Virus record (IMG/VR): IMGVR_UViG_3300021599_001043
Coordinates: 1-23,242 of that record
Length of the DNA stretch: 23,242 nt
Source of the DNA: a virus
Strand: one strand, 5' to 3'
Made by a program: the position numbers and the translations under genes. This document shows positions 6,555 through 20,348 of the stretch, piece by piece; the stretch's first letter is position 1; the number at the start of each line of letters is the position of its first letter. The notes below the pieces were generated by a model. The model was not told the origin of the DNA, made no database searches, and saw nothing but the letters and a program-made list of their open reading frames with translations.

Positions 6555-7229
6555 TTATGAAATATCTGTACATATATTATAACCTTCTATAATATATGTA
6601 TTTGTACCAACAGTAATAGTTTGAGGAGAGGTTGTGATTAAAATACCATTAACTGTTACTGTTCCTGAAACTTTTCCACTTAAATAAGATAAGTTTTCAA
6701 AAGTAGCACCTCCAAATTCAGAAACGTCATCTGCATAAAGTGTTACACTATATGAATATGATTGACAAGATGTTGTACAATTTGTTGATGTACATCTATC
6801 AACTTGAAAAGCAAAAACCAAATCATCAGGGTTCTGTCCAGAAAGCCTTTCTATAATAACACCAAAATAGCCATTTGAGTTCGTAGGTAGAATCCTAACA
6901 ACACTAGGAGATTGTGTAGTGGTAGTAGTAGTAGTAGTTGGTTCACAGTTTGAAACCACTGTACAAAACTGGTTCAATAGTCCAGGATTGTTCAATATAA
7001 CATTCAAAATTGCTGTTGCAAGATTAGTTGGACAAAGTTTATCATCTATTTTCTGTAAAACTGTAGTTAGAGAATCACACGTATTCACTCCTGTACAAGG
7101 GAGATTTCCTCCATTGTAAAAAGTGTTATCTGTATTTGTTTTATATACATAACAGGGGTCTACTCCACAATGTTTAGGATAGACAGTTGTACCTCCGTTA
7201 TAACAAGGAGTTCCAGGATGACAAGACAT
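6555..7229 (-). CDS. Cys-rich, Thr-linker structural protein (fibre/decoration candidate)
   Basis: This 224-aa protein has three visible parts. An N-terminal Cys-rich segment (residues 1-95, about ten Cys) contains DPCYVYKTNTDN and CDSLTTVLQKIDDKLC. Next is an eight-threonine run (98-105), then a beta-rich C-terminal domain (106-224) with Cys pairs (CTSTNCTTSC). The layout of anchor, flexible Thr linker and beta domain fits a virion surface protein or receptor-binding tip, but no named family is recognised. The N-terminus resembles that of the neighbouring collar fibre (Cys, Tyr, then DSL..V...I..L), hinting at a shared virion-attachment module. It is 18 bases downstream of the collar-fibre gene and last before a strong terminator. 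The Thr run is encoded by a GTA-like triplet repeat (plus strand ~6915-6942). Confidence 0.6.
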   Translation of the reverse strand: MSCHPGTPCYNGGTTVYPKHCGVDPCYVYKTNTDNTFYNGGNLPCTGVNTCDSLTTVLQKIDDKLCPTNLATAILNVILNNPGLLNQFCTVVSNCEPTTTTTTTTQSPSVVRILPTNSNGYFGVIIERLSGQNPDDLVFAFQVDRCTSTNCTTSCQSYSYSVTLYADDVSEFGGATFENLSYLSGKVSGTVTVNGILITTSPQTITVGTNTYIIEGYNICTDIS

Positions 7230-9429: not shown

Positions 9430-10329
9430 TTAAGGAATCAAAGTGGTTGTAGTAGAAGTTGTAGGCCATACAGTGGTAGTAGTGCTTGTAGTTGTAATAC
9501 AAGTGTTACCGCCTTCAGGAACACCTAATGCATCTTCAAGAATAGCTTGAAGAGCAGAAGAAGCAGCTTGAGGAACAGCAATGATCACTATGCTATCTTC
9601 TTTGATGTAGTCACCCCAGCTGTAAGCAGACTTGTCATACTCATTAAACTTAATGTAATAAGTGTCATAAGTAGTACCAGCACTCACCCAGCTTTCGAAG
9701 TTCTCATTGTAACCCACCATTCTGTAGAGGTGCTTCAGATAACCAGCTTGGTAAGAATAGTAGTTCTTTTCAAGTTGGATGATTTCATCAGAAGTACCTG
9801 TAGGATAGGAAGAACGTTGTGTAATAGTTGCTGTAGCAACGATGTTACAATTGTCAGCCACAATAAAGTCAGCAGTGGTAGCAGGACCAGAATAAACGAA
9901 AGTACGGAAGTACATTCTGTCATATTCAAAAGGAAATGCTGCTACATCACAAGGCTGGCCATAATGTGCACGAAGTGTTAAAGTGACAATATCACCACAC
10001 TTTACATTCCAACCACTAACATCAGTAACCTGTGTTGCAGCAGTAGGACATCCTGTTACAGTGTACCACTCAGTAACATTAGACTTACAAGCAGCACTTT
10101 CACCACATCCAGCAATTTTGTCTGAACGTTTAGAACCTTGCAAATAAGTGTTCACTCTACCTTGAGCAATGTAAAAATAAGGAGCACTTCCAGGAGTGAG
10201 CGTAGCTGCGTAATTGTTATCAAAGATACCAACTTGGCCAGCTGTGAGGTCTTGCGTAGAGCCAGAGCTAGGGAACGAAGATTGCCCTACTGGAACTACG
10301 AAGAGCGTAGTTAATGAAAAATCAGCCAT
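9430..10329 (-). CDS. Beta-rich virion protein with Thr-rich C-terminal tail
   Basis: This 299-aa protein begins MADFSLTTLFVVPVGQSSFP. It is rich in beta-strand-type sequence, Tyr and aromatic residues (YYIKFNEYDKSAYSWGDYIK), with scattered Cys (CGESAACKSN, TGCPTAATQ, CGDIV). The last ~23 residues are mainly Thr/Ser with Trp-Pro (TTTTVWPTTSTTTTLIP). No enzyme motif is visible. Position after the ring-type gene and before the fibre cassette suggests a decoration, head-fibre or tail-surface protein likely present in many copies. The Thr-rich end could be a flexible, possibly glycosylated surface tail. It starts after a short AT-rich gap (TATAAAACAAAATG), with no Shine-Dalgarno, as is usual in Bacteroidota. 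Confidence 0.6.
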   Translation of the reverse strand: MADFSLTTLFVVPVGQSSFPSSGSTQDLTAGQVGIFDNNYAATLTPGSAPYFYIAQGRVNTYLQGSKRSDKIAGCGESAACKSNVTEWYTVTGCPTAATQVTDVSGWNVKCGDIVTLTLRAHYGQPCDVAAFPFEYDRMYFRTFVYSGPATTADFIVADNCNIVATATITQRSSYPTGTSDEIIQLEKNYYSYQAGYLKHLYRMVGYNENFESWVSAGTTYDTYYIKFNEYDKSAYSWGDYIKEDSIVIIAVPQAASSALQAILEDALGVPEGGNTCITTTSTTTTVWPTTSTTTTLIP

Positions 10330-12247: not shown

Positions 12248-13801
12248 TTAGAATTGTGGGATTTCTTCAATCAGCACTGTGCGAGACAGATCTTCAATGA
12301 ATACATCACAACGGTCTTTCATCCAGATTTCATACCCAGGGAATTTGTTAGCAGAGCTCATACCTTGAGACTTAGCAAAACCTAAGTGGTGACGAGTTCC
12401 ATCAATATATCCCCAAGTCATAGAAGGAGCACCCTTCATACGCACCTCACGGATGTTGTTAACCAAAGAACCATCGCTCATAGGACTAACATCAAATACC
12501 ATGAATACAGGTGTAGATTTCTTGTTCTGACCAAATTCTAGATTAGATTGAGGAAGATCAAGTTCTTTCAGGTGAATCAGTTCAACACGACCAGTCTCAC
12601 GAGTAACCATTGCATCGAATGCAAAGTTGTAAGTGATGTGCTGTCCTTCTCCTTGCAAGTAACGATTTCCGCTATCAGCCATGAAGGTAAGACCACTGTT
12701 AAGAGCGTCTGTCTTCAGAGCTTGTTGGAATACATCAAATCCAGCTTCGTTAGTGTACATTTTAACTCTACGATCTTTAACATCCACCCTGCGGTAGAAC
12801 AGATCACCAAATACAGAACGAATCAAGTTTGCAGAGAATTCACCACGGTTGTATTGTACCAAGTTACCATTGTTACGCATTCTGTGATATACACCAGCAG
12901 AAGTACGCTTCAATTCTTGCTTAGAACCATTTGTTTTAACAGTACCAGGCTTGCTCCAAATCATACGCTTAACTTTCAACTCAAGCATAGACTTACGCAT
13001 CCAGAACTCAATGAATGGTTCCCATTTAACATCGTTACGAGTGAGAGGAAGCTGATTTCTACGCTGAGGAGCATACACCAGGATATCAAGAGGCTTACCA
13101 GAAGCATCTCTCATCATTTTGTCATCAGCCCACTCAGTGATTTTGTGTTCGAAACCATATGCAGAACCAAGAGATTCAAACATAGTGATACGCTCACCCA
13201 AACGAGGTAATCCTAACAAATCTTGGTCAAACTCACCAATTGCAGCATCAACTAATTCAAGTTCAATACCCACTTGGAGGAATGTAGAGCTTACGAAATC
13301 AACTGTAGGGTTGTCAGTCACCAGAGTGAAGCTATACAACCATCCCATGTTCCAAGGAACTGGATCTTTGATAACGTAAAAACGAGGACCATATTGACGA
13401 GAACCTACAGAAACGATAGCATTCTTAGAAAACTCGTTAGTGTCCAGAACAAGAGAAAACTCTTGACCATCAATACCAGGCTTCTGCAAAGATGCAGTGC
13501 TATCTGGAATATCAATGATTTTAGGGAATTTGTAAGGAACAGCTACTTGCCATTTCCAAGCATCACTATTATTATCAATGTAATAAGGTGTGCTTTTGTT
13601 AATCATGTCTAAGAAGTCATTGCTATATAAGCTAGACTGTGTGTACAAGCTGATGATTTTCTTATCATAATCAGCAGGTTCGGTGCTGTGGAAGCTTTCT
13701 AAGTGATTAGCATCTGTAAGCTTTCCTACAGCACGCTTATCCATAGAAGCAACACGAGCATACGTAAAACCAGTTAAACCTGGGATTGTTTGAATTGCCA
13801 T
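12248..13801 (-). CDS. Major capsid protein, crAss-like
   Basis: This 517-aa protein starts MAIQTIPGLTGFTYARVASM. Its length fits crAss-like capsid proteins (~490-520 aa, HK97-type fold known from structures). Position after an acidic scaffold-like protein and the TerL-portal pair also fits. The sequence is a mix of strands and helices with conserved-looking segments DKRAVGKLTDANHLES, LYSNDFLDMINKSTPYYI, QYGPRFYVIKDPVPW and MTWGYIDGTRHHLGF, and no enzyme motif. Codon use is richer in C-ending and CGT codons than in the neighbours, as expected for a very highly made protein. Its start overlaps the end of the scaffold-like gene by 28 bases. Hairpins follow the stop. Confidence 0.85.
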   Translation of the reverse strand: MAIQTIPGLTGFTYARVASMDKRAVGKLTDANHLESFHSTEPADYDKKIISLYTQSSLYSNDFLDMINKSTPYYIDNNSDAWKWQVAVPYKFPKIIDIPDSTASLQKPGIDGQEFSLVLDTNEFSKNAIVSVGSRQYGPRFYVIKDPVPWNMGWLYSFTLVTDNPTVDFVSSTFLQVGIELELVDAAIGEFDQDLLGLPRLGERITMFESLGSAYGFEHKITEWADDKMMRDASGKPLDILVYAPQRRNQLPLTRNDVKWEPFIEFWMRKSMLELKVKRMIWSKPGTVKTNGSKQELKRTSAGVYHRMRNNGNLVQYNRGEFSANLIRSVFGDLFYRRVDVKDRRVKMYTNEAGFDVFQQALKTDALNSGLTFMADSGNRYLQGEGQHITYNFAFDAMVTRETGRVELIHLKELDLPQSNLEFGQNKKSTPVFMVFDVSPMSDGSLVNNIREVRMKGAPSMTWGYIDGTRHHLGFAKSQGMSSANKFPGYEIWMKDRCDVFIEDLSRTVLIEEIPQF

Positions 13802-14976
13802 TTTGTTACTGTTTTTTGAATCGTAGACAGAGTAGGATCTTTTTCTAAGATCTTAAGAAGAAGACCAACCTTAACCTTTTTTTCATGATTTTCAGGTCTC
13901 TTCAACTCCAGGATAGATCTATCAAATTCTGTAATAGTCTCTCCAGAACTTGTTTTATATCTATCCACCAGTAAGAAATCTTGTAGTTCGTTTACTAGTT
14001 TGGGGTTTAAAGGAATACCGTCAAACTCTCTAGCTTTTAGCTTATCTTCAAGAATCGATTGTACATTACTTACATATTGATTCTTAATAGCTTGTTTTTG
14101 TTGTAATTCTTGTTGAGCTTTCTGTTCTACTTGTTGAAGTTTTGCAGCTTCTTTTTTCACAAGTACCTTGTGATGTTTAGTTGCTACAGTTTCAAGATCA
14201 CCATAGTTTTTGAGCCTATCAATCTCTGTATCAATGTCCTCTGGTTCAAAACCTTGGTCTGTAAGGGCTTGCTTTAACACTCTCACCTGATTATTTTCAT
14301 CACTCAGGTCCATTTCAGAAAAGCTTACAATATTATTATATGTACCGAAATACTCTTTTGGATCAACTCCTTTTACAAAGATTGCTTGGAAAGCCTGTTG
14401 GTAATCTTCACCAAACTGACCGATGAAGTTATTTACCATTTCTACAGCACCTTTCTGTTTCTCTTCTTGAAACCTTTCAAGAAATTGTTCAGGAGTGGCA
14501 ATAGAAACATCTTCTTCATCTTCTCCTTTTGTAAATACACCTAGTTTAAACAAGTCATTCGCTAATGCACCAAATTGTGTAACTTCAGATGTTTCTTCAG
14601 AATCTTCTTCAGAGGGTTTCTCCTCTTCTTTTTCAGGTTCTTTTTGAGCGGTTTCTGTTTTCACCTTTGCCTTAGGGGTTGGGGTGACAACTTCCTCTTC
14701 CTCTTCTTCATCTTCAGTGTCTGATAATAAAAATTTCTGAAGAGAAATACTAGCTTCTTCCTTTTCTTTATTATCAGAGCCAGCGTTTTCTTCAGACTTA
14801 GGAGCTTCCTGTTTTACAGGAGCTTCAGCTTTAATATCCTGAATATCATCAGGACTACTAGAAGCTGTTTCTGGAGACAACAAATCGTTCAGAAGTTCGG
14901 CATTACCTGCACCCATTTCTATAGTATTCTCAATACTAAAGTTCCCAAATGAAGGGTTTTCCAAATTTTCGGACAT
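13774..14976 (-). CDS. Acidic scaffold / capsid cargo-type protein
   Basis: This 400-aa protein starts MSENLENPSFGNFSIENTIE. Residues ~40-135 are disordered and very acidic with Lys/Glu/Pro repeats (DTEDEEEEEEVV around 86-97). Residues 160-265 are helical (EEKQKGAVEMVNNFIGQFGEDYQ, EPEDIDTEIDRLKNY). A coiled coil lies at about 270-300 (KKEAAKLQQVEQKAQQELQQ), followed by a basic C-terminus. This composition, directly upstream of and overlapping the MCP, is typical of phage scaffolding proteins, and crAss-like phages have such a gene between portal and MCP. It could instead be a packaged cargo protein. A candidate promoter (15006-15036) precedes it, which would let scaffold and capsid be made in excess. 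Confidence 0.65.
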   Translation of the reverse strand: MSENLENPSFGNFSIENTIEMGAGNAELLNDLLSPETASSSPDDIQDIKAEAPVKQEAPKSEENAGSDNKEKEEASISLQKFLLSDTEDEEEEEEVVTPTPKAKVKTETAQKEPEKEEEKPSEEDSEETSEVTQFGALANDLFKLGVFTKGEDEEDVSIATPEQFLERFQEEKQKGAVEMVNNFIGQFGEDYQQAFQAIFVKGVDPKEYFGTYNNIVSFSEMDLSDENNQVRVLKQALTDQGFEPEDIDTEIDRLKNYGDLETVATKHHKVLVKKEAAKLQQVEQKAQQELQQKQAIKNQYVSNVQSILEDKLKAREFDGIPLNPKLVNELQDFLLVDRYKTSSGETITEFDRSILELKRPENHEKKVKVGLLLKILEKDPTLSTIQKTVTKWQFKQSQV

Positions 14977-15005: not shown

Positions 15006-15036
15006 TAAAAATAGGTTTGAATTAATTAATAACAAA
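15006..15036 (-). promoter_or_regulatory. Candidate Bacteroidota-type promoter for scaffold-MCP
   Basis: On the minus strand TTTG (15036-15033) is followed after 19 bases by TATTTTTA (15013-15006), one base from TAnnTTTG. It lies in a 132-base AT-rich gap before the scaffold-like gene and would start RNA near 15000. The pattern mirrors the promoter at 6401-6432, but AT-rich sequence makes chance matches likelier. A 6-bp hairpin (AATGCT/AGCATT) lies further upstream in the gap. Confidence 0.4.
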
Positions 15037-15108
15037 GAATAAACACTATTTATCAATGCTTTTTCGAAATAATATAGCATTAATATTTTTTACTCTAACA
15101 AAATCAAT

Positions 15109-15636
15109 TTACTCTTTGAACACCGTATACACTTTTGTTGTCACCACTCTAGCAAAATACACCTTACAAACAGCAATACCTAAAGGTTCACATTCTTTCT
15201 TTATTGCGTTCTTTATAGCAGTTAAAGTTTTCTTTTCCTTAATCTCATCCCATGTACAGTCTGTAAGATAGTCAGCAATTGTTCCGCGAGAAACATCTCT
15301 TACATTACCAGCAGCATCATTTGCATCTATTAAATACTTCTTGGGGTCAATAATATCAAACATTACAATAGGTTCTACGCTCACTTGTTTACCATCTATT
15401 GTTGTAATGTCTATAGGACTTAAAGGGAATGTATCTATTGTCTTTATACATGTGTGTATTTCATCTATAAGAGGAATTTTAAAGTTTAATCCTTCTTTAA
15501 GATTCTTTTTGTATTTTCCAAGTCTTAATAGGACGCCACTTTCATAACATCTTAATATAGAAATTGGGGAAAGATAATTATTCCACTTTTCTCCTACCCA
15601 TTCAATTGTGCTTATTAGAATATTACTGTCTAGCAT
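15109..15636 (-). CDS. SPFH / band-7 (stomatin-prohibitin-like) domain protein
   Basis: This 175-aa protein has the SPFH pattern: ESGVLLRLGKY (32-42), LKEGLNFKIPLIDEI (46-60), then beta strands with DGKQVSVEPIVMFDIIDPKKYL (81-102), followed by helices (NVRDVSRGTIADYLTDCTWDEI). SPFH proteins usually form large membrane-bound ring or cage assemblies. Here the domain is nearly the whole protein, with only a short N-terminal segment (residues 1-28, LISTIEWVGEKWNNYL) that might touch membrane and no clear transmembrane helix. It lies between portal and scaffold/MCP, where many tailed phages place the capsid maturation protease. It overlaps the 39-aa gene by 14 bases. Function in the phage unknown. 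Confidence 0.75.
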   Translation of the reverse strand: MLDSNILISTIEWVGEKWNNYLSPISILRCYESGVLLRLGKYKKNLKEGLNFKIPLIDEIHTCIKTIDTFPLSPIDITTIDGKQVSVEPIVMFDIIDPKKYLIDANDAAGNVRDVSRGTIADYLTDCTWDEIKEKKTLTAIKNAIKKECEPLGIAVCKVYFARVVTTKVYTVFKE

Positions 15637-15742
15637 TTGATTTACGTTTTTTTCTTAGATTTTTATACTTCAATTTACGAATAATACAGATTCCTTTCTT
15701 AAAATGGGCATCTATCAATATTGGATCAATTGGGATATACAT
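15623..15742 (-). CDS. Small basic protein, 39 aa, coupled to portal
   Basis: The sequence begins MYIPIDPILIDAHFKKGICI; its second half is very basic (RKLKYKNLRKKRKSNARQ). Its ATG shares the A with the portal stop (TAATG), the same junction used between TerS candidate/TerL and TerL/portal. It overlaps the SPFH gene by 14 bases at its other end. These tight joins at both ends argue that it is translated. The basic tail could bind nucleic acid or an acidic partner such as the scaffold, which is speculation. I recognise no family. Confidence 0.6.
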   Translation of the reverse strand: MYIPIDPILIDAHFKKGICIIRKLKYKNLRKKRKSNARQ

Positions 15743-18336
15743 TATTTAGATTTTTTACTAGCTCTATTTTTAGCATTTTCTTTAGCAATAGCTAAATCAT
15801 TTGCTTGATTCTCACGAGCCACTTGAAGTTTTTCTCTTTCAAGGGCCATTTTATCAGAAGCTTGTTTATTCTTTGAATTAATTTCTGCTAGCTTTAAACT
15901 ATAATCTTTTGCTGCCTTATTCTCTTCATTTGTAATTCTTGTCATCTCAAGAACATCTGGAACAGCGTTCTGATTGATGTCTTCAGATTCAACATTACCA
16001 AAACCTGTAGCCTGAATAATTGCAATTTTCTCCTTAGAAAGCCTGTCAAGTTCTTTTTGATAGTTATCGTTAGCTTGTTTTTCGTCTGCAAGTATTTTAG
16101 CTTGCTGAAGAGCTGCCATTTGTTGCTCTTGTTGAGCCTGTTGTTGTTGCTCTTGAAGCTGCATTTGTCTTTCTTGCATTTCTTGTTGTCTATCCTTAAG
16201 GTCTTTGAACACCTTCTTCATCTGACGAATAGACTTAGTGGAATAAAGTTCAATAATGTCATGCACTGTACCACCATTCTGAAGAATTGTCTGAGAAAGT
16301 TGTCTAACTTCCTGGAATATTTGGTTGTCTTCAGGTCTATTTGTTGGGAACACCTTCAAATCACGGAATCTAATGTCTGCACCATTCACCTGTACAAATG
16401 CAGACTCTCCTTCAGACGTAATATAAGATATTGTAGATTGAGGCTTTTGACTTTCTACATACAAAGCAGCATCTATAATTGCTTGGTAGAGCTGTCCCAT
16501 TACATACTCGTGAGCTATAAACAGAGGTTCTGTCTGAGCATACGATTGTTGAATAGCGGTGTTCGTACCTGTAGCAGATTCTGAAGCCATTACACTCCCA
16601 AGTCTCTGTCTAGTTATACCAATTAGTTCCCAACACTCATTCTTAAGCTGCATAGCTAGTTGATAACGAGATTGAATTTCTTGAGTACGTGTAAGGTCTA
16701 TATCTCTAAACTGATTAAATGATGAAGGAGATTTAAGGTTCTCAGGAGAATCATCAATAAACACTACACCTCTGTTACGAGCTTCCATTTCCCAAATATC
16801 AAGAGCATCTTGTGCGTCCCCATCTTTAGGAATGGGTACATGTCTGATTGATGTCAAATACACCTTACCTACCTCTTTCTCAAGAAGCTTGTAAAGCTGG
16901 TTCATACATACATTATATAACACCTGGAAAGGTTTCATCAAATCCACTAAAGAACGAGCCTCTGTATTCTTCACTTCAAAAGTCATTCCTATAAGTGGAC
17001 AATATGTAAGAAGTTTAAATGGTTTTATATGGTAGATGTCTGGACCAATCTTAATACCCTGATACCACTGATTTATCCATCCCCAATCTAAAGACTGTTG
17101 CATAGGATGTGTACCAGATTTGTAACTCTCATCTACAAGAACAGACTGTTCATTACCCACCTCATCTAAATAGATGAGTTTTCCGATCTTCTTTTTAGAG
17201 AGCCAATATGCTCTCACCACTACATATTTGTATCCAAATGATGACACATTAGAAGTGAGACCAAGGAAATCTTTAAGGCCATCATTATTTTCCTTCATCT
17301 CACTTTCAATAATCATTCTTGTCTGAAGAACAAGAGGATCGTACGTGTCATATGTAACAGAATCAATACCAGGCGTTACATTAGGATTACCCAGATTTGA
17401 TTCACGAACGTTAATCAACCCATAGTCCTGAAGAGAAGATCTTAAGTGATCTATCTCTTCCTTAGTGAGGTCTGGAACACTCTCAATAATCTCAGAAAGC
17501 TCCATAACATTCACAGTACCAGCAGCATATGCACCTTGTGCTCTACCAGTGGTGTCTGAAATATATTTTCTATCAGGAGTGGTGAGGAACCAAGTGTTCT
17601 TAGGGTTGGCCACCTCAATGTTAAATCCAAGTTTAGAGTTGTCTTCATATATGTGAAAAAACTCTCTTGATGAAATAAGAAGATCTCTAAAAGCATCTTC
17701 TCCTTTTTCTTTTAAATTAAACTCCATCTTTTGAGCTGTCAGAATATGGTTTGCCCACTTTTCAGCTACAGATGTATAGGAATCAAGTTGATCTTTCACT
17801 TGCTCCATAGTCATTTGTTCAACTTCCTCTTCTGTCACTTCTTCCACCTGCCCTTCCATCATGAGCTTTTCCATTATCTTATTCTTTGCTTGACTCATGA
17901 TGTATCCCTGAAGAAGCTCAGTTTTGTGCTGTAGTTCTTCAGATTTACTATCATCATCAAAAGCTTTCACTCTAAATGTATCAGGTCTTTTTGATACCTC
18001 ACCAACAAGATTGTTGATAGGAGTGGTGATAATAGAATAATGTTTTACATAAGCAGGAAGTTCTATGTTTGCTGTAAGCATGTCTGTAAAACTCTTTACT
18101 TGGGGCTCTTGATAGAAATCCTCCATTCTCAGAATACCCTTTACAAGATCATAGTTTTTAACAAACGTATCCCTGTTCTTTACATACTCAGCATAAGCCT
18201 TGTTTGCAAAGTAGTCCATTGTATTTTTTATCCAACTCTCATCCTGTTTTTCTTTTTCAGTTTTGAATTGATCGGGAAATATATTCAAATACGCATAGCG
18301 TATTGTTGCATCTTTTGTATACCTAATAATAGCCAT
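15742..18336 (-). CDS. Portal protein, crAss-like (long form)
   Basis: This 864-aa protein is much longer than typical portals (~450-600 aa) but usual for crAss-like phages (~750-870 aa). It follows TerL directly (TAATG overlap). The central part (~330-640) has the mixed helix/strand character of portal wing and stem, with conserved-looking segments VVVRAYWLSKKKIGKLIY, FKLLTYCPLIGMTFEVKN and ITRQRLGSVMASESATGTNT (the last resembling portal-core ends). Residues ~700-770 are Gln/Glu-rich coiled coil (RQQEMQERQMQLQEQQQQ), which fits a long C-terminal barrel. The extreme C-terminus is basic (AKENAKNRASKKSK). It forms the DNA entry/exit ring and the docking site for terminase and tail rings. Confidence 0.85.
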   Translation of the reverse strand: MAIIRYTKDATIRYAYLNIFPDQFKTEKEKQDESWIKNTMDYFANKAYAEYVKNRDTFVKNYDLVKGILRMEDFYQEPQVKSFTDMLTANIELPAYVKHYSIITTPINNLVGEVSKRPDTFRVKAFDDDSKSEELQHKTELLQGYIMSQAKNKIMEKLMMEGQVEEVTEEEVEQMTMEQVKDQLDSYTSVAEKWANHILTAQKMEFNLKEKGEDAFRDLLISSREFFHIYEDNSKLGFNIEVANPKNTWFLTTPDRKYISDTTGRAQGAYAAGTVNVMELSEIIESVPDLTKEEIDHLRSSLQDYGLINVRESNLGNPNVTPGIDSVTYDTYDPLVLQTRMIIESEMKENNDGLKDFLGLTSNVSSFGYKYVVVRAYWLSKKKIGKLIYLDEVGNEQSVLVDESYKSGTHPMQQSLDWGWINQWYQGIKIGPDIYHIKPFKLLTYCPLIGMTFEVKNTEARSLVDLMKPFQVLYNVCMNQLYKLLEKEVGKVYLTSIRHVPIPKDGDAQDALDIWEMEARNRGVVFIDDSPENLKSPSSFNQFRDIDLTRTQEIQSRYQLAMQLKNECWELIGITRQRLGSVMASESATGTNTAIQQSYAQTEPLFIAHEYVMGQLYQAIIDAALYVESQKPQSTISYITSEGESAFVQVNGADIRFRDLKVFPTNRPEDNQIFQEVRQLSQTILQNGGTVHDIIELYSTKSIRQMKKVFKDLKDRQQEMQERQMQLQEQQQQAQQEQQMAALQQAKILADEKQANDNYQKELDRLSKEKIAIIQATGFGNVESEDINQNAVPDVLEMTRITNEENKAAKDYSLKLAEINSKNKQASDKMALEREKLQVARENQANDLAIAKENAKNRASKKSK

Positions 18337-20348
18337 TACGAAAATAATTTATGTTTTCTTGATTCAAATATTCCTCTTGATGGAGTGAACAAAGCTTGTT
18401 TTGGTTTCTTTTTAAACATAGCTGCAATCCTATCATCACCAGAAGCTCCCACTTTTCCTAATATAGGGTCCATCTTCATAGCCTGAGCTATTGCTAATTC
18501 TGCTGCTACAATACGGTCAAAGTTACCCTGATCATTGTATTGTATTATCTCTTCCAAAAGAACAGGATCAAACATCTTGCTCACTCCTGTCACCTCTCTT
18601 GTAATATTTCCATTTTCATCTGTCTCTTTGTGTATCACCTCCTCCATATACTTCTTAAGACAATTATGAAGGTAGTCTATCACCTTTTGGGCAGAACGGT
18701 GTACACCATATTCACGTTTAACGGTGGTGTTTGGAACCACCTCCATAAGCCACTGTGGCTGCTTTTCCAAATAATGTGCATCTCCTTTAGATTTCATATA
18801 TTCAATAAACGATATATCATCATTTTCACAGAGGGTGCGAGCGTTATAATACTTAATAAGAAGTCTAGCCTGTTCTTCCCAGGTTTCTTTCTTATCAGGA
18901 CGTGCTACATAGCTTGCTACAAACATATCCTGATATTTCTCACCTGTAATATCATGCATTCGTTTATAAATATAAACTGCTCCTAAAGAAGAGCTATATG
19001 CTGATTTACCCTGTCTGTAAGGGTCAACTCCTGCTACATACAATCCATAAGGAGGATTCTGTACAGGAAATTCATATATTACAACAGGAGCGTCTTTTAA
19101 ATCACTTGGTTTTAGAGGGAAGTTTGTTATAGGCTGTTTGTCTGTAAACTCATGTGCAATCTTGTCTCCATCGTTAAAAAGAATAACAGGAATACCTGTT
19201 TTCTCCTGTTGCATCAACCTAAACTTCTGACGTTTAGCAGCATCAATATCAAATATGTTTGTATCCTCATTAAGGAAGATGTCATCCACCTCAATAGGAT
19301 AGTACATCTTTTCTTTAAGATAGGCTATTCTATCCCCTGCTTTCTTTAGTCTTTCTAGATTACCATTAGTGATTTCAAGAGCTTTTTCCTCATTACTCAC
19401 CAGCATTGGAATATCTTGGAGAGCAGGATTATTGAGGTAGTGCCCTAATGTGGAAGGTTCCTTAGCTTCCATCCTATATTTATAGGAAATGAAAAGTCCA
19501 TGTACACGCTTTTCATCCTTCTCATTATTATATGTAAGAAAGTTGAAATTGTCTACATCAAACATGAGGGATTTAGCATCCATGAATTTCTTCATATCAC
19601 CCCCAGTGCCCGTAAGAATTGGAGAACATCCCCAACCATACGGTGTTGTGAAACCTGGAACAGCAGCTTGGAAACCTCTAAGGAAGTTTCCTTTACCAAT
19701 CTCATCTATAATTAATTTACGAGGTTTTGTACCAGCAATAGCTTCCTCATTATTACCTTCATCTAAGTTACGAACAAGGATTTGTGAAAAGGGAATACGC
19801 TCTCCCCCCTTTGTTTTAATTCCAAGACTCACCTGATTCTTCCAATTATCCTCTATCCTTTGCCACCTCCAAGCTTCTGGAAGGAAGTTGAGTCCTTTAT
19901 CGATCTTATCTGTAATAAGCTTTATATCTGGAGCGTTCAATCCAGCAATAATGTTCTGGGAGTTTTCATCAAATGTAGCTCCCCATCCTATATAAGAACT
20001 CTCTATAACAGACTTAGCCAAACGTCTGATTCCTAATATCACCAATCCTTTCTTATCCCTTTGAGCCCTATCTATTTCATTTGTAATCACCCACTCATTG
20101 TCTCTAAGAAGGGGGTTTGCATATTTCTGGGAAATCCTACCACGTTCATCCATAACATCCACTTCTGTATTCCAGAAGTTGAGATGCCAATATAAAAATG
20201 GGTTGATGTAAACACCACCCATCATAGCTCCATTTAAACACAGTTCTTTATGGAAATTAAAGAATGGTTTGTATTCAGCAGAATCCTTATCAGGAATCCT
20301 TTTCTGATTAAGATACCAGTCTTTATAATCTATACTCTGTATTTCCAT
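18336..20348 (-). CDS. terL: Large terminase subunit (TerL)
   Basis: This 670-aa protein has an N-terminal ATPase with a deviant Walker A GIRRLAKS (106-113), Walker B KLIIDEIGKG (211-220; D215, E216) and coupling motif LTGTGGD (245-251). The C-terminal RNase H-like nuclease has acidic residues at VAGVDPYRQG (D442), LCENDD (E508, D510-511) and NFDRIVAAELA (D611). All elements of a working packaging motor are present: ATP-driven DNA translocation into the prohead and headful or end cutting. Length fits crAss-like TerL. Start and stop both form TAATG overlaps with the adjacent genes, so synthesis is probably coupled with the TerS candidate and portal. Confidence 0.95.
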   Translation of the reverse strand: MEIQSIDYKDWYLNQKRIPDKDSAEYKPFFNFHKELCLNGAMMGGVYINPFLYWHLNFWNTEVDVMDERGRISQKYANPLLRDNEWVITNEIDRAQRDKKGLVILGIRRLAKSVIESSYIGWGATFDENSQNIIAGLNAPDIKLITDKIDKGLNFLPEAWRWQRIEDNWKNQVSLGIKTKGGERIPFSQILVRNLDEGNNEEAIAGTKPRKLIIDEIGKGNFLRGFQAAVPGFTTPYGWGCSPILTGTGGDMKKFMDAKSLMFDVDNFNFLTYNNEKDEKRVHGLFISYKYRMEAKEPSTLGHYLNNPALQDIPMLVSNEEKALEITNGNLERLKKAGDRIAYLKEKMYYPIEVDDIFLNEDTNIFDIDAAKRQKFRLMQQEKTGIPVILFNDGDKIAHEFTDKQPITNFPLKPSDLKDAPVVIYEFPVQNPPYGLYVAGVDPYRQGKSAYSSSLGAVYIYKRMHDITGEKYQDMFVASYVARPDKKETWEEQARLLIKYYNARTLCENDDISFIEYMKSKGDAHYLEKQPQWLMEVVPNTTVKREYGVHRSAQKVIDYLHNCLKKYMEEVIHKETDENGNITREVTGVSKMFDPVLLEEIIQYNDQGNFDRIVAAELAIAQAMKMDPILGKVGASGDDRIAAMFKKKPKQALFTPSRGIFESRKHKLFS

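What the first reader, a model, noticed from the sequence alone, without database searches (positions are those of the whole stretch)
15109..15636. SPFH/band-7 protein encoded where a capsid protease is expected
Between portal and scaffold/MCP most HK97-type phages encode a prohead protease. Here the slot holds a 175-aa SPFH-domain protein, and no protease motif is visible in the whole window. SPFH proteins form large ring or cage assemblies, often on membranes. A phage-encoded, nearly bare SPFH domain could nucleate or template procapsid assembly at the membrane, protect assembly from host proteases such as FtsH (SPFH proteins regulate it in bacteria), or be a virion part.
Basis: partly seen in the sequence, partly recalled or inferred. 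Interest (0 to 1): 0.65.

Follow-up and report, generated by a model that had tools for sequence, protein, structure and literature searches.

The report
Swappable SPFH gene beside phage portal
A family of environmental crAss-like phages carries, in one fixed and swappable slot next to the portal gene, a stripped-down version of a membrane-scaffold (SPFH) protein that most members have and some do without, so it is an accessory gene, probably acting at the host membrane, and not a replacement for a capsid protease.

Summary
The SPFH gene is real: 175 aa, Band_7 E=5e-14, AlphaFold pLDDT 83, best structural matches stomatin, HflK and QmcA (61, 110). It has an N-terminal helix plus SPFH1-SPFH2 and stops where cellular SPFH coiled coils begin. 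The "protease slot" premise fails. The phage is crAss-like with a P22-type portal. Three prohead-protease-type families were absent from eight relatives including crAss001, with or without SPFH (114-116), and close deposited relatives have nothing between portal and scaffold. Across 101 relatives found by a conserved DNA element, the slot holds SPFH type B (80), type A as here, a two-gene HExxH cassette (4) or nothing (4). A 113.7-kb genome with terminal overlap and near-identical MCP lacks SPFH entirely. Slot types interchange on the portal tree (>=12 changes, 52). One close pair has 87-97% flanking DNA identity but unrelated slot genes. Occupants start on the portal stop codon (37 of 38, 80) and SPFH is under purifying selection. 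Best reading: a dispensable, conserved late accessory factor acting at the host membrane. Function is inferred. Other phage SPFH proteins have turned up in virion proteomes, so a virion role stays open.

The parts
15109..15636 (-). SPFH type A gene (175 aa): N-terminal amphipathic-type helix (res. 4-22), SPFH1 and SPFH2; no transmembrane segment, no coiled coil
15742..18336 (-). Portal protein (P22-like); its stop codon TAATG is the entry point of nearly every slot occupant examined
15623..15742 (-). 39-aa ORF not seen in the closest relatives, starting on the portal TAATG and overlapping the SPFH start by 14 nt; keeps the coupled arrangement
15070..15098 (-). Conserved element TTAGAGTAAAAAANNNTAATGCTATATTA closing the slot, one copy per locus, present also when the slot is empty
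15006..15036 (-). Bacteroidota-type promoter-like sequence TTTG-N19-TAnTTTTA ahead of the scaffold gene (probably a separate unit from the slot gene)
   Evidence: invariant columns; consensus from general knowledge
13774..14976 (-). Scaffold-like protein (400 aa, acidic N-terminal part), gene-77 position of crAssphage
12248..13801 (-). Crassvirus major capsid protein
18336..20348 (-). Terminase large subunit

Best explanation
The gene is the usual occupant of an accessory cassette slot between portal and scaffold in an environmental crAss-like lineage. Shown: it is an SPFH1-SPFH2 protein without the coiled coil that caps cellular SPFH cages; in relatives it begins on the portal stop codon, so it is probably made by translational coupling with the portal; it is under purifying selection, common (92 of 101 loci), dispensable, and interchangeable with an unrelated HExxH cassette. 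Inferred: its N-terminal helix lays it on the cytoplasmic face of the inner membrane late in infection, where its SPFH domain binds or co-assembles with host SPFH rings (HflK/C-FtsH or QmcA/stomatin type). Being cap-less, it would loosen or redirect membrane-protease quality control or envelope-stress handling in the phage's favour. It helps the infection but is not needed to build a capsid.
For: Domain and fold: (the model aligns to HflK 79-258 and QmcA 1-179, ending where their coiled coils begin). Fixed position. Coupling: (37 of 38 occupants overlap the portal stop by 1 nt). Dispensability: (113.7-kb genome with a 91-b terminal overlap and no SPFH). Cassette swap: >=12 changes; L042/L088 flanks 87-97.5% nt identical, slot unrelated. 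Mutual exclusion with the HExxH cassette. Purifying selection: (dN/dS 0.127 type A, 0.089 type B). Amphipathic N-terminus without a TM segment: (type B strong, p<=0.003; type A weaker, p 0.06-0.11 in most, 0.002 in L008). Six longer SPFH proteins in a Chitinophaga genome that carries a related provirus.
Against: No direct evidence of membrane binding or of contact with a host SPFH ring. Type A helix amphipathicity is marginal. SPFH proteins of other phages (Cellulophaga phi4:1, Eneladusvirus, Sajous1) were reported in virion preparations, which fits a virion part at least as well. Coupling to the portal fits an assembly or virion role too. Oligomeric state was not modelled.
Confidence: 0.42

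Rival explanations
1. It is a minor virion protein or ejected cargo: made in portal-like amounts, packaged near the portal vertex, and delivered to or used at the host membrane on entry.
For: SPFH proteins of Cellulophaga phage phi4:1_13 ('part of structural virion based on experimental MS/MS proteomics'), of Eneladusvirus and of Sajous1 (3 peptides) were found in virion preparations. Coupling to portal. In crAss001 the gene after the portal encodes a head fibre, and crassvirus virions carry cargo proteins (PMC10172136).
Against: At least the phi4:1/phi17:2 and Sajous1 examples are SPFH lipoproteins, and the phi17:2 and Lbo proteins show no blastp similarity to the slot protein beyond short chance stretches, so they may co-purify with membrane. 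Sajous1 counts are trace. Slot content swaps while the MCP stays 96-98% identical.
Confidence: 0.28
2. It is a capsid-assembly helper: a membrane-bound ring that templates the portal ring or procapsid, or shields assembly proteins from host proteases.
For: Position between portal and scaffold in all SPFH-carrying relatives; one-base overlap with portal; SPFH proteins form rings (PDB entries).
Against: Genomes with near-identical MCP and homologous scaffold lack it. Slot types mix on the portal tree, including near neighbours with non-homologous occupants. The nearest deposited relatives have no gene in the slot.
Confidence: 0.13
3. It is a competition or counter-defence cassette: it alters the host envelope late in infection to block superinfection or neutralise a membrane-anchored defence, as the alternative HExxH cassette may do.
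For: Swap with an unrelated two-gene cassette; the interval carries lysis and envelope genes in crAss001 and reverse-strand host-like genes in a Chitinophaga provirus.
Against: No PADLOC match for any slot protein; 92% prevalence is high for a defence-specific gene; no own promoter is evident inside the slot.
Confidence: 0.14
4. It replaces or substitutes for the prohead protease, for example by recruiting a host protease to cleave the scaffold.
For: The other slot cassette encodes an 84-aa protein with an HExxH motif, the zinc-protease signature; FtsH, partner of HflK/C, is also an HExxH protease (general knowledge).
Against: S78, S77 and ClpP-type proteases are absent with or without SPFH, and in crAss001. 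Empty-slot phages have the same kind of scaffold. The HExxH protein has no family match and a poor model, so its activity is unproven.
Confidence: 0.03

Closest known systems
HflK/HflC (E. coli FtsH modulators; PDB 7vhq, 7wi3, 9cz2)
   Same: SPFH1-SPFH2 fold; closest curated sequence model is HflK (49.8 bits type A, 81.1 bits type B)
   Different: No transmembrane helix, no coiled coil or C-terminal cap; less than a third of the HflK equivalog cut-off for type A
Stomatin and QmcA
   Same: Best structural matches (stomatin Z about 15-17, QmcA Z 14.4)
   Different: Those carry membrane hairpin or TM anchors and long coiled coils; the phage protein ends after SPFH2
Phage SPFH lipoproteins (phi17:2 gp169, phi4:1 gp165, Lbo-JY46; PHROG 200)
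   Same: Phage-encoded Band_7 proteins in related or other tailed phages; some reported in virion proteomes
   Different: About 260 aa with a lipoprotein-type signal, encoded far from the structural module; no meaningful blastp similarity to the slot protein
UniProt A0A6J7WFI0, 'HflK protein' of an uncultured Caudovirales phage
   Same: 173 aa, 72% identical, full-length match: the same kind of protein already deposited
   Different: Automatic name only; context and distribution not described in the papers searched here
crAss001 portal-to-scaffold interval (gp21-gp30)
   Same: Same genome position used for accessory genes
   Different: Holds head fibre, tailspike, holin/lysis and peptidoglycan genes, no SPFH

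Membership tests
SPFH/Band 7 superfamily | Profile match over curated cut-off | tested here: met
   PF01145 53.1 bits against 23.6
SPFH/Band 7 superfamily | SPFH1-SPFH2 fold | tested here: met
   Model pLDDT 82.7; stomatin SPFH Z 16-17 (rmsd 1.2-1.9, 104-111 aligned), HflK Z 14.9 (rmsd 8.2, 168 aligned)
SPFH/Band 7 superfamily | Membrane-associated ring or cage oligomer | not testable with these tools
   No multimer modelling; N-terminal helix only suggestive
HflK equivalog | NCBIfam TIGR01933 score over cut-off (159.4 bits) | tested here: not met
   49.8 bits
HflK equivalog | N-terminal TM helix and C-terminal coiled coil/cap | tested here: not met
   Maximum 19-residue hydropathy 1.1; protein ends after SPFH2
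Phage SPFH lipoprotein (PHROG 200) | Lipoprotein signal with lipobox | tested here: not met
   N-terminus MLDSNILISTIEW has no signal peptide or lipobox; phi17:2 and Lbo have VFMSC/VFVAC-type motifs (read by eye)
Prohead protease | S78, S77, ClpP-type or other protease family match | tested here: not met
   No match in the slot protein or in relatives
Crassvirales-like phage | Crass MCP, R1/R2 ring proteins, P22-like portal, IHF | tested here: met
   PF23898, PF24228, PF25702, PF16510, PF00216
Named Crassvirales families (Steig-, Intesti-, Suoli-, Crevaviridae) | Close TerL/MCP relationship | tested here: inconclusive
   Closest TerL is Lbo-JY46 (40%) and phi17:2 (34%), both outside named families; crAss001 21%
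Classic phage moron | Variable, dispensable insert between conserved genes | tested here: met
Classic phage moron | Own promoter and terminator | tested here: inconclusive
   Occupants start on the portal stop codon and the only promoter-like element aligned lies after the slot; transcription was not measured

The most novel reading that the evidence does not exclude
A coiled-coil-less SPFH protein is a phage-made 'cap-less subunit' that co-assembles into host SPFH cages and opens or disables them during late infection, a viral counter to bacterial membrane-protease microdomains, kept in a dedicated swap slot where some siblings use a mini HExxH protein instead.
Probability: 0.2. Interest if true: 0.78.

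Novelty: new variant of a known kind. Interest (0 to 1): 0.5.

Why it matters
SPFH proteins are found in nearly all cells, yet what phages do with their own copies is largely untested. Here nature has run the swap experiment: the same capsid genes occur with two SPFH types, with an unrelated HExxH cassette, or with nothing. That gives a clean comparison for what a phage SPFH contributes, and marks the portal-scaffold gap as a place to look for accessory genes in crAss-like phages.

Tried and rejected
Protease substitute: rejected because protease families are absent regardless of slot content and close deposited relatives have no gene there. Chance or annotation artefact: rejected. A role essential to assembly: rejected by the empty-slot genome with terminal overlap and by empty-slot loci. 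Hidden second SPFH copies: none; each long contig with SPFH has exactly one. HExxH cassette as a known protease: no Pfam, NCBIfam, PHROG, PADLOC or PDB match, and the AlphaFold model is poor. 'Peptidase' annotated after the portal in crAss-like cr50_1: no peptidase family match. Literature on SPFH in crAss-like phages: no held paper. Faecal 'Bacteriophage sp.' SPFH hits (L093, L094) were fetched but are unannotated and were not analysed further. Rfam and tRNA scans of the window: nothing.

Full report
What is there. The window is the structural block of a crAss-like phage on the minus strand: TerL, portal, SPFH, scaffold-like protein, crassvirus MCP, further virion proteins, ring proteins R2 and R1, and an IHF-like protein. 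The ORF at 15109-15636 is a Band_7/SPFH protein (PF01145 E=5e-14; HflK in the PDB E=1e-6; HflK equivalog model 49.8 bits, well under its cut-off). AlphaFold2 on a 33-sequence alignment gives pLDDT 82.7 with a helix at residues 4-22 followed by SPFH1 and SPFH2. Foldseek and VIA-align match stomatin, prohibitin, HflK and QmcA. The phage protein aligns to QmcA 1-179 and HflK 79-258 and then stops, so it lacks the coiled coil and cap of cellular cages. There is no transmembrane segment. The N-terminal helix is clearly amphipathic in type B and weakly so in type A.

The protease premise. The window lacks a protease match, but so do relatives. S78, S77 and ClpP-type families gave nothing in six contigs of 111-118 kb (four of them with terminal overlaps), crAss001 or Cellulophaga phage phi17:2. 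The portal is of the P22 type. P22 has no prohead protease (general knowledge). In phi17:2 and Leptolyngbya phage Lbo-JY46, the closest deposited relatives by TerL (34% and 40%), the portal is followed directly by the scaffold gene. In crAss001 the same interval holds head fibre, tailspike, lysis and peptidoglycan genes. The cryo-EM paper on crAss001 (PMC10172136) does not use the words protease or scaffold.

The slot. A search with the MCP returned 80 contigs with at least 96% MCP identity. A search with a 29-base element that lies just downstream of the slot returned 101 loci that could be read here, partly the same contigs. Of the 101, 80 hold SPFH type B (176 aa, about 25% identical to the window protein), 12 hold type A, 4 hold a two-gene cassette, 4 are empty and 1 is truncated. 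The 58-row portal tree set has 36 B, 8 A, 9 two-gene, 4 empty and 1 with a lone 73-aa ORF. The two-gene cassette encodes an acidic ORF of about 80 aa and an 84-aa protein with an invariant HExxH; neither matches any family, and the model of the 84-aa protein is poor.

Dispensable and swapped. Contig G002 (L041) is 113,680 b with a 91-b terminal overlap, which suggests a complete genome. Its slot is empty and it has no SPFH anywhere. Every long contig with SPFH has exactly one. On the portal tree the slot types need 12 changes, against 20.5 on average for shuffled labels. The neighbours L042 (HExxH cassette) and L088 (SPFH B) share 92.6% of TerL, 87% of portal, 92% of scaffold and 97.5% of MCP nucleotides, yet their slots are unrelated, with homology resuming at the conserved element. 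In a search of 24 contigs, the HExxH protein was found in all five with that cassette and in none with SPFH or an empty slot. Swaps are therefore cassette exchanges bounded by the portal stop and the element.

Expression. In 37 of 38 loci with SPFH, HExxH or 73-aa occupants the first slot ORF overlaps the portal stop by one base (TAATG or the like), which suggests coupled translation. In the window a 39-aa ORF intervenes and overlaps the SPFH start. After the element lies an invariant TTTG-N19-TAnTTTTA, which resembles the Bacteroidota promoter known from the literature (general knowledge). The scaffold and MCP would then start a new unit and SPFH would belong with TerL and portal. This was not measured.

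Constraint and kinship. Median dN/dS is 0.127 for type A and 0.089 for type B, close to the scaffold and somewhat above portal. Types A and B match each other (E=1e-22) far better than either matches SPFH proteins of a Chitinophaga genome (best E about 1e-7). They share length and an N-terminal helix, so they are probably one phage family that diverged. Caveat: the automatic ORF picked for L203 is not its SPFH frame, so that comparison covers five of the six Chitinophaga proteins.

Other phage SPFH proteins. phi17:2 and Lbo-JY46 encode a different, 260-aa SPFH with a lipoprotein-type signal, outside the structural module. The phi4:1_13 record says its SPFH is 'part of structural virion based on experimental MS/MS proteomics'. 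Eneladusvirus (PMC7760394) and Sajous1 (PMC10892097, 3 peptides) are further reports. These proteins are not demonstrable orthologues of the slot protein, and lipoproteins may co-purify with membranes, but they keep a virion role open. Of ten other crass-type records searched (crAss001, crAss002, phi14:2, Fpv3, ProJPt-Bp1, cr50_1, cr130_1, DAC15, cr118_1, cr109_1), none had a Band_7 match over the cut-off.

Mechanism. I commit to a late accessory factor at the host inner membrane that engages host SPFH/FtsH-type complexes. Shown: fold, missing cap, coupled arrangement, conservation, dispensability, swapping. Inferred: membrane binding, partner and effect. The main rival is a minor virion or cargo protein. 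An assembly role is less likely and a protease substitute is unlikely.

Novelty. Phage SPFH proteins are known, and a 72% identical protein is already deposited as 'HflK protein'. What appears undescribed in the searched literature is the bare, coiled-coil-less form as the usual occupant of a swappable portal-scaffold slot in an environmental crAss-like lineage.

Limits. IMG/VR contigs may be fragments; the element survey requires an exact match and so favours close relatives; counts are of contigs, not species; no multimer, proteomic or genetic data were available.

Noticed in passing
window 15070-15098 (-): 29-base element TTAGAGTAAAAAANNNTAATGCTATATTA, zero expected by chance, one copy per locus, conserved even with an empty slot; lies upstream of a Bacteroidota-type promoter-like sequence before the scaffold gene. 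Role unknown (late-gene regulator site?).
   Followed up: partly
L030:6296-6547, L042:6302-6553 and others: 84-aa protein with invariant LHEHFHLKHPDWSE (HExxH) plus an ~80-aa acidic partner as an alternative slot cassette; no family match.
   Followed up: partly
L198 (Chitinophaga sp. YR573, NZ_FOJF01000001.1, about 3,696,789-3,714,622): Crass-like structural genes (portal 51%, MCP 61%) inside a 4.8-Mb bacterial contig, i.e. an integrated relative; its portal-scaffold gap carries reverse-strand genes including an 872-aa secreted metalloprotease-like protein.
   Followed up: partly
window 12248-13801 and loci L013-L091: MCP is 96-98% identical across contigs from many metagenome samples while portal is about 80-90% and scaffold about 60-80% identical: unusually slow MCP evolution.
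   Followed up: partly
KC821609.1:128187-128966; PP438436.1:3866-4648: phi17:2 and Lbo-JY46 encode orthologous (62%) SPFH lipoproteins; in phi17:2 close to an OmpA-domain protein. The phi4:1 copy is noted as virion-associated by MS/MS.
   Followed up: partly
L197 (JACIXZ010000023.1): A 13-kb crass-like contig (MCP 89%) binned in a Tissierellales MAG; probably misbinned, or a host surprise.
   Followed up: no
L016:5628-6047: Recombination endonuclease VII-type gene (Pfam E 8e-26) inserted between portal and SPFH; a possible mobile endonuclease that could drive cassette exchange.
   Followed up: no
window 6555-7229 and 9430-10329 (-): Two structural-block proteins with long threonine runs, plausible flexible linkers.
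   Followed up: no
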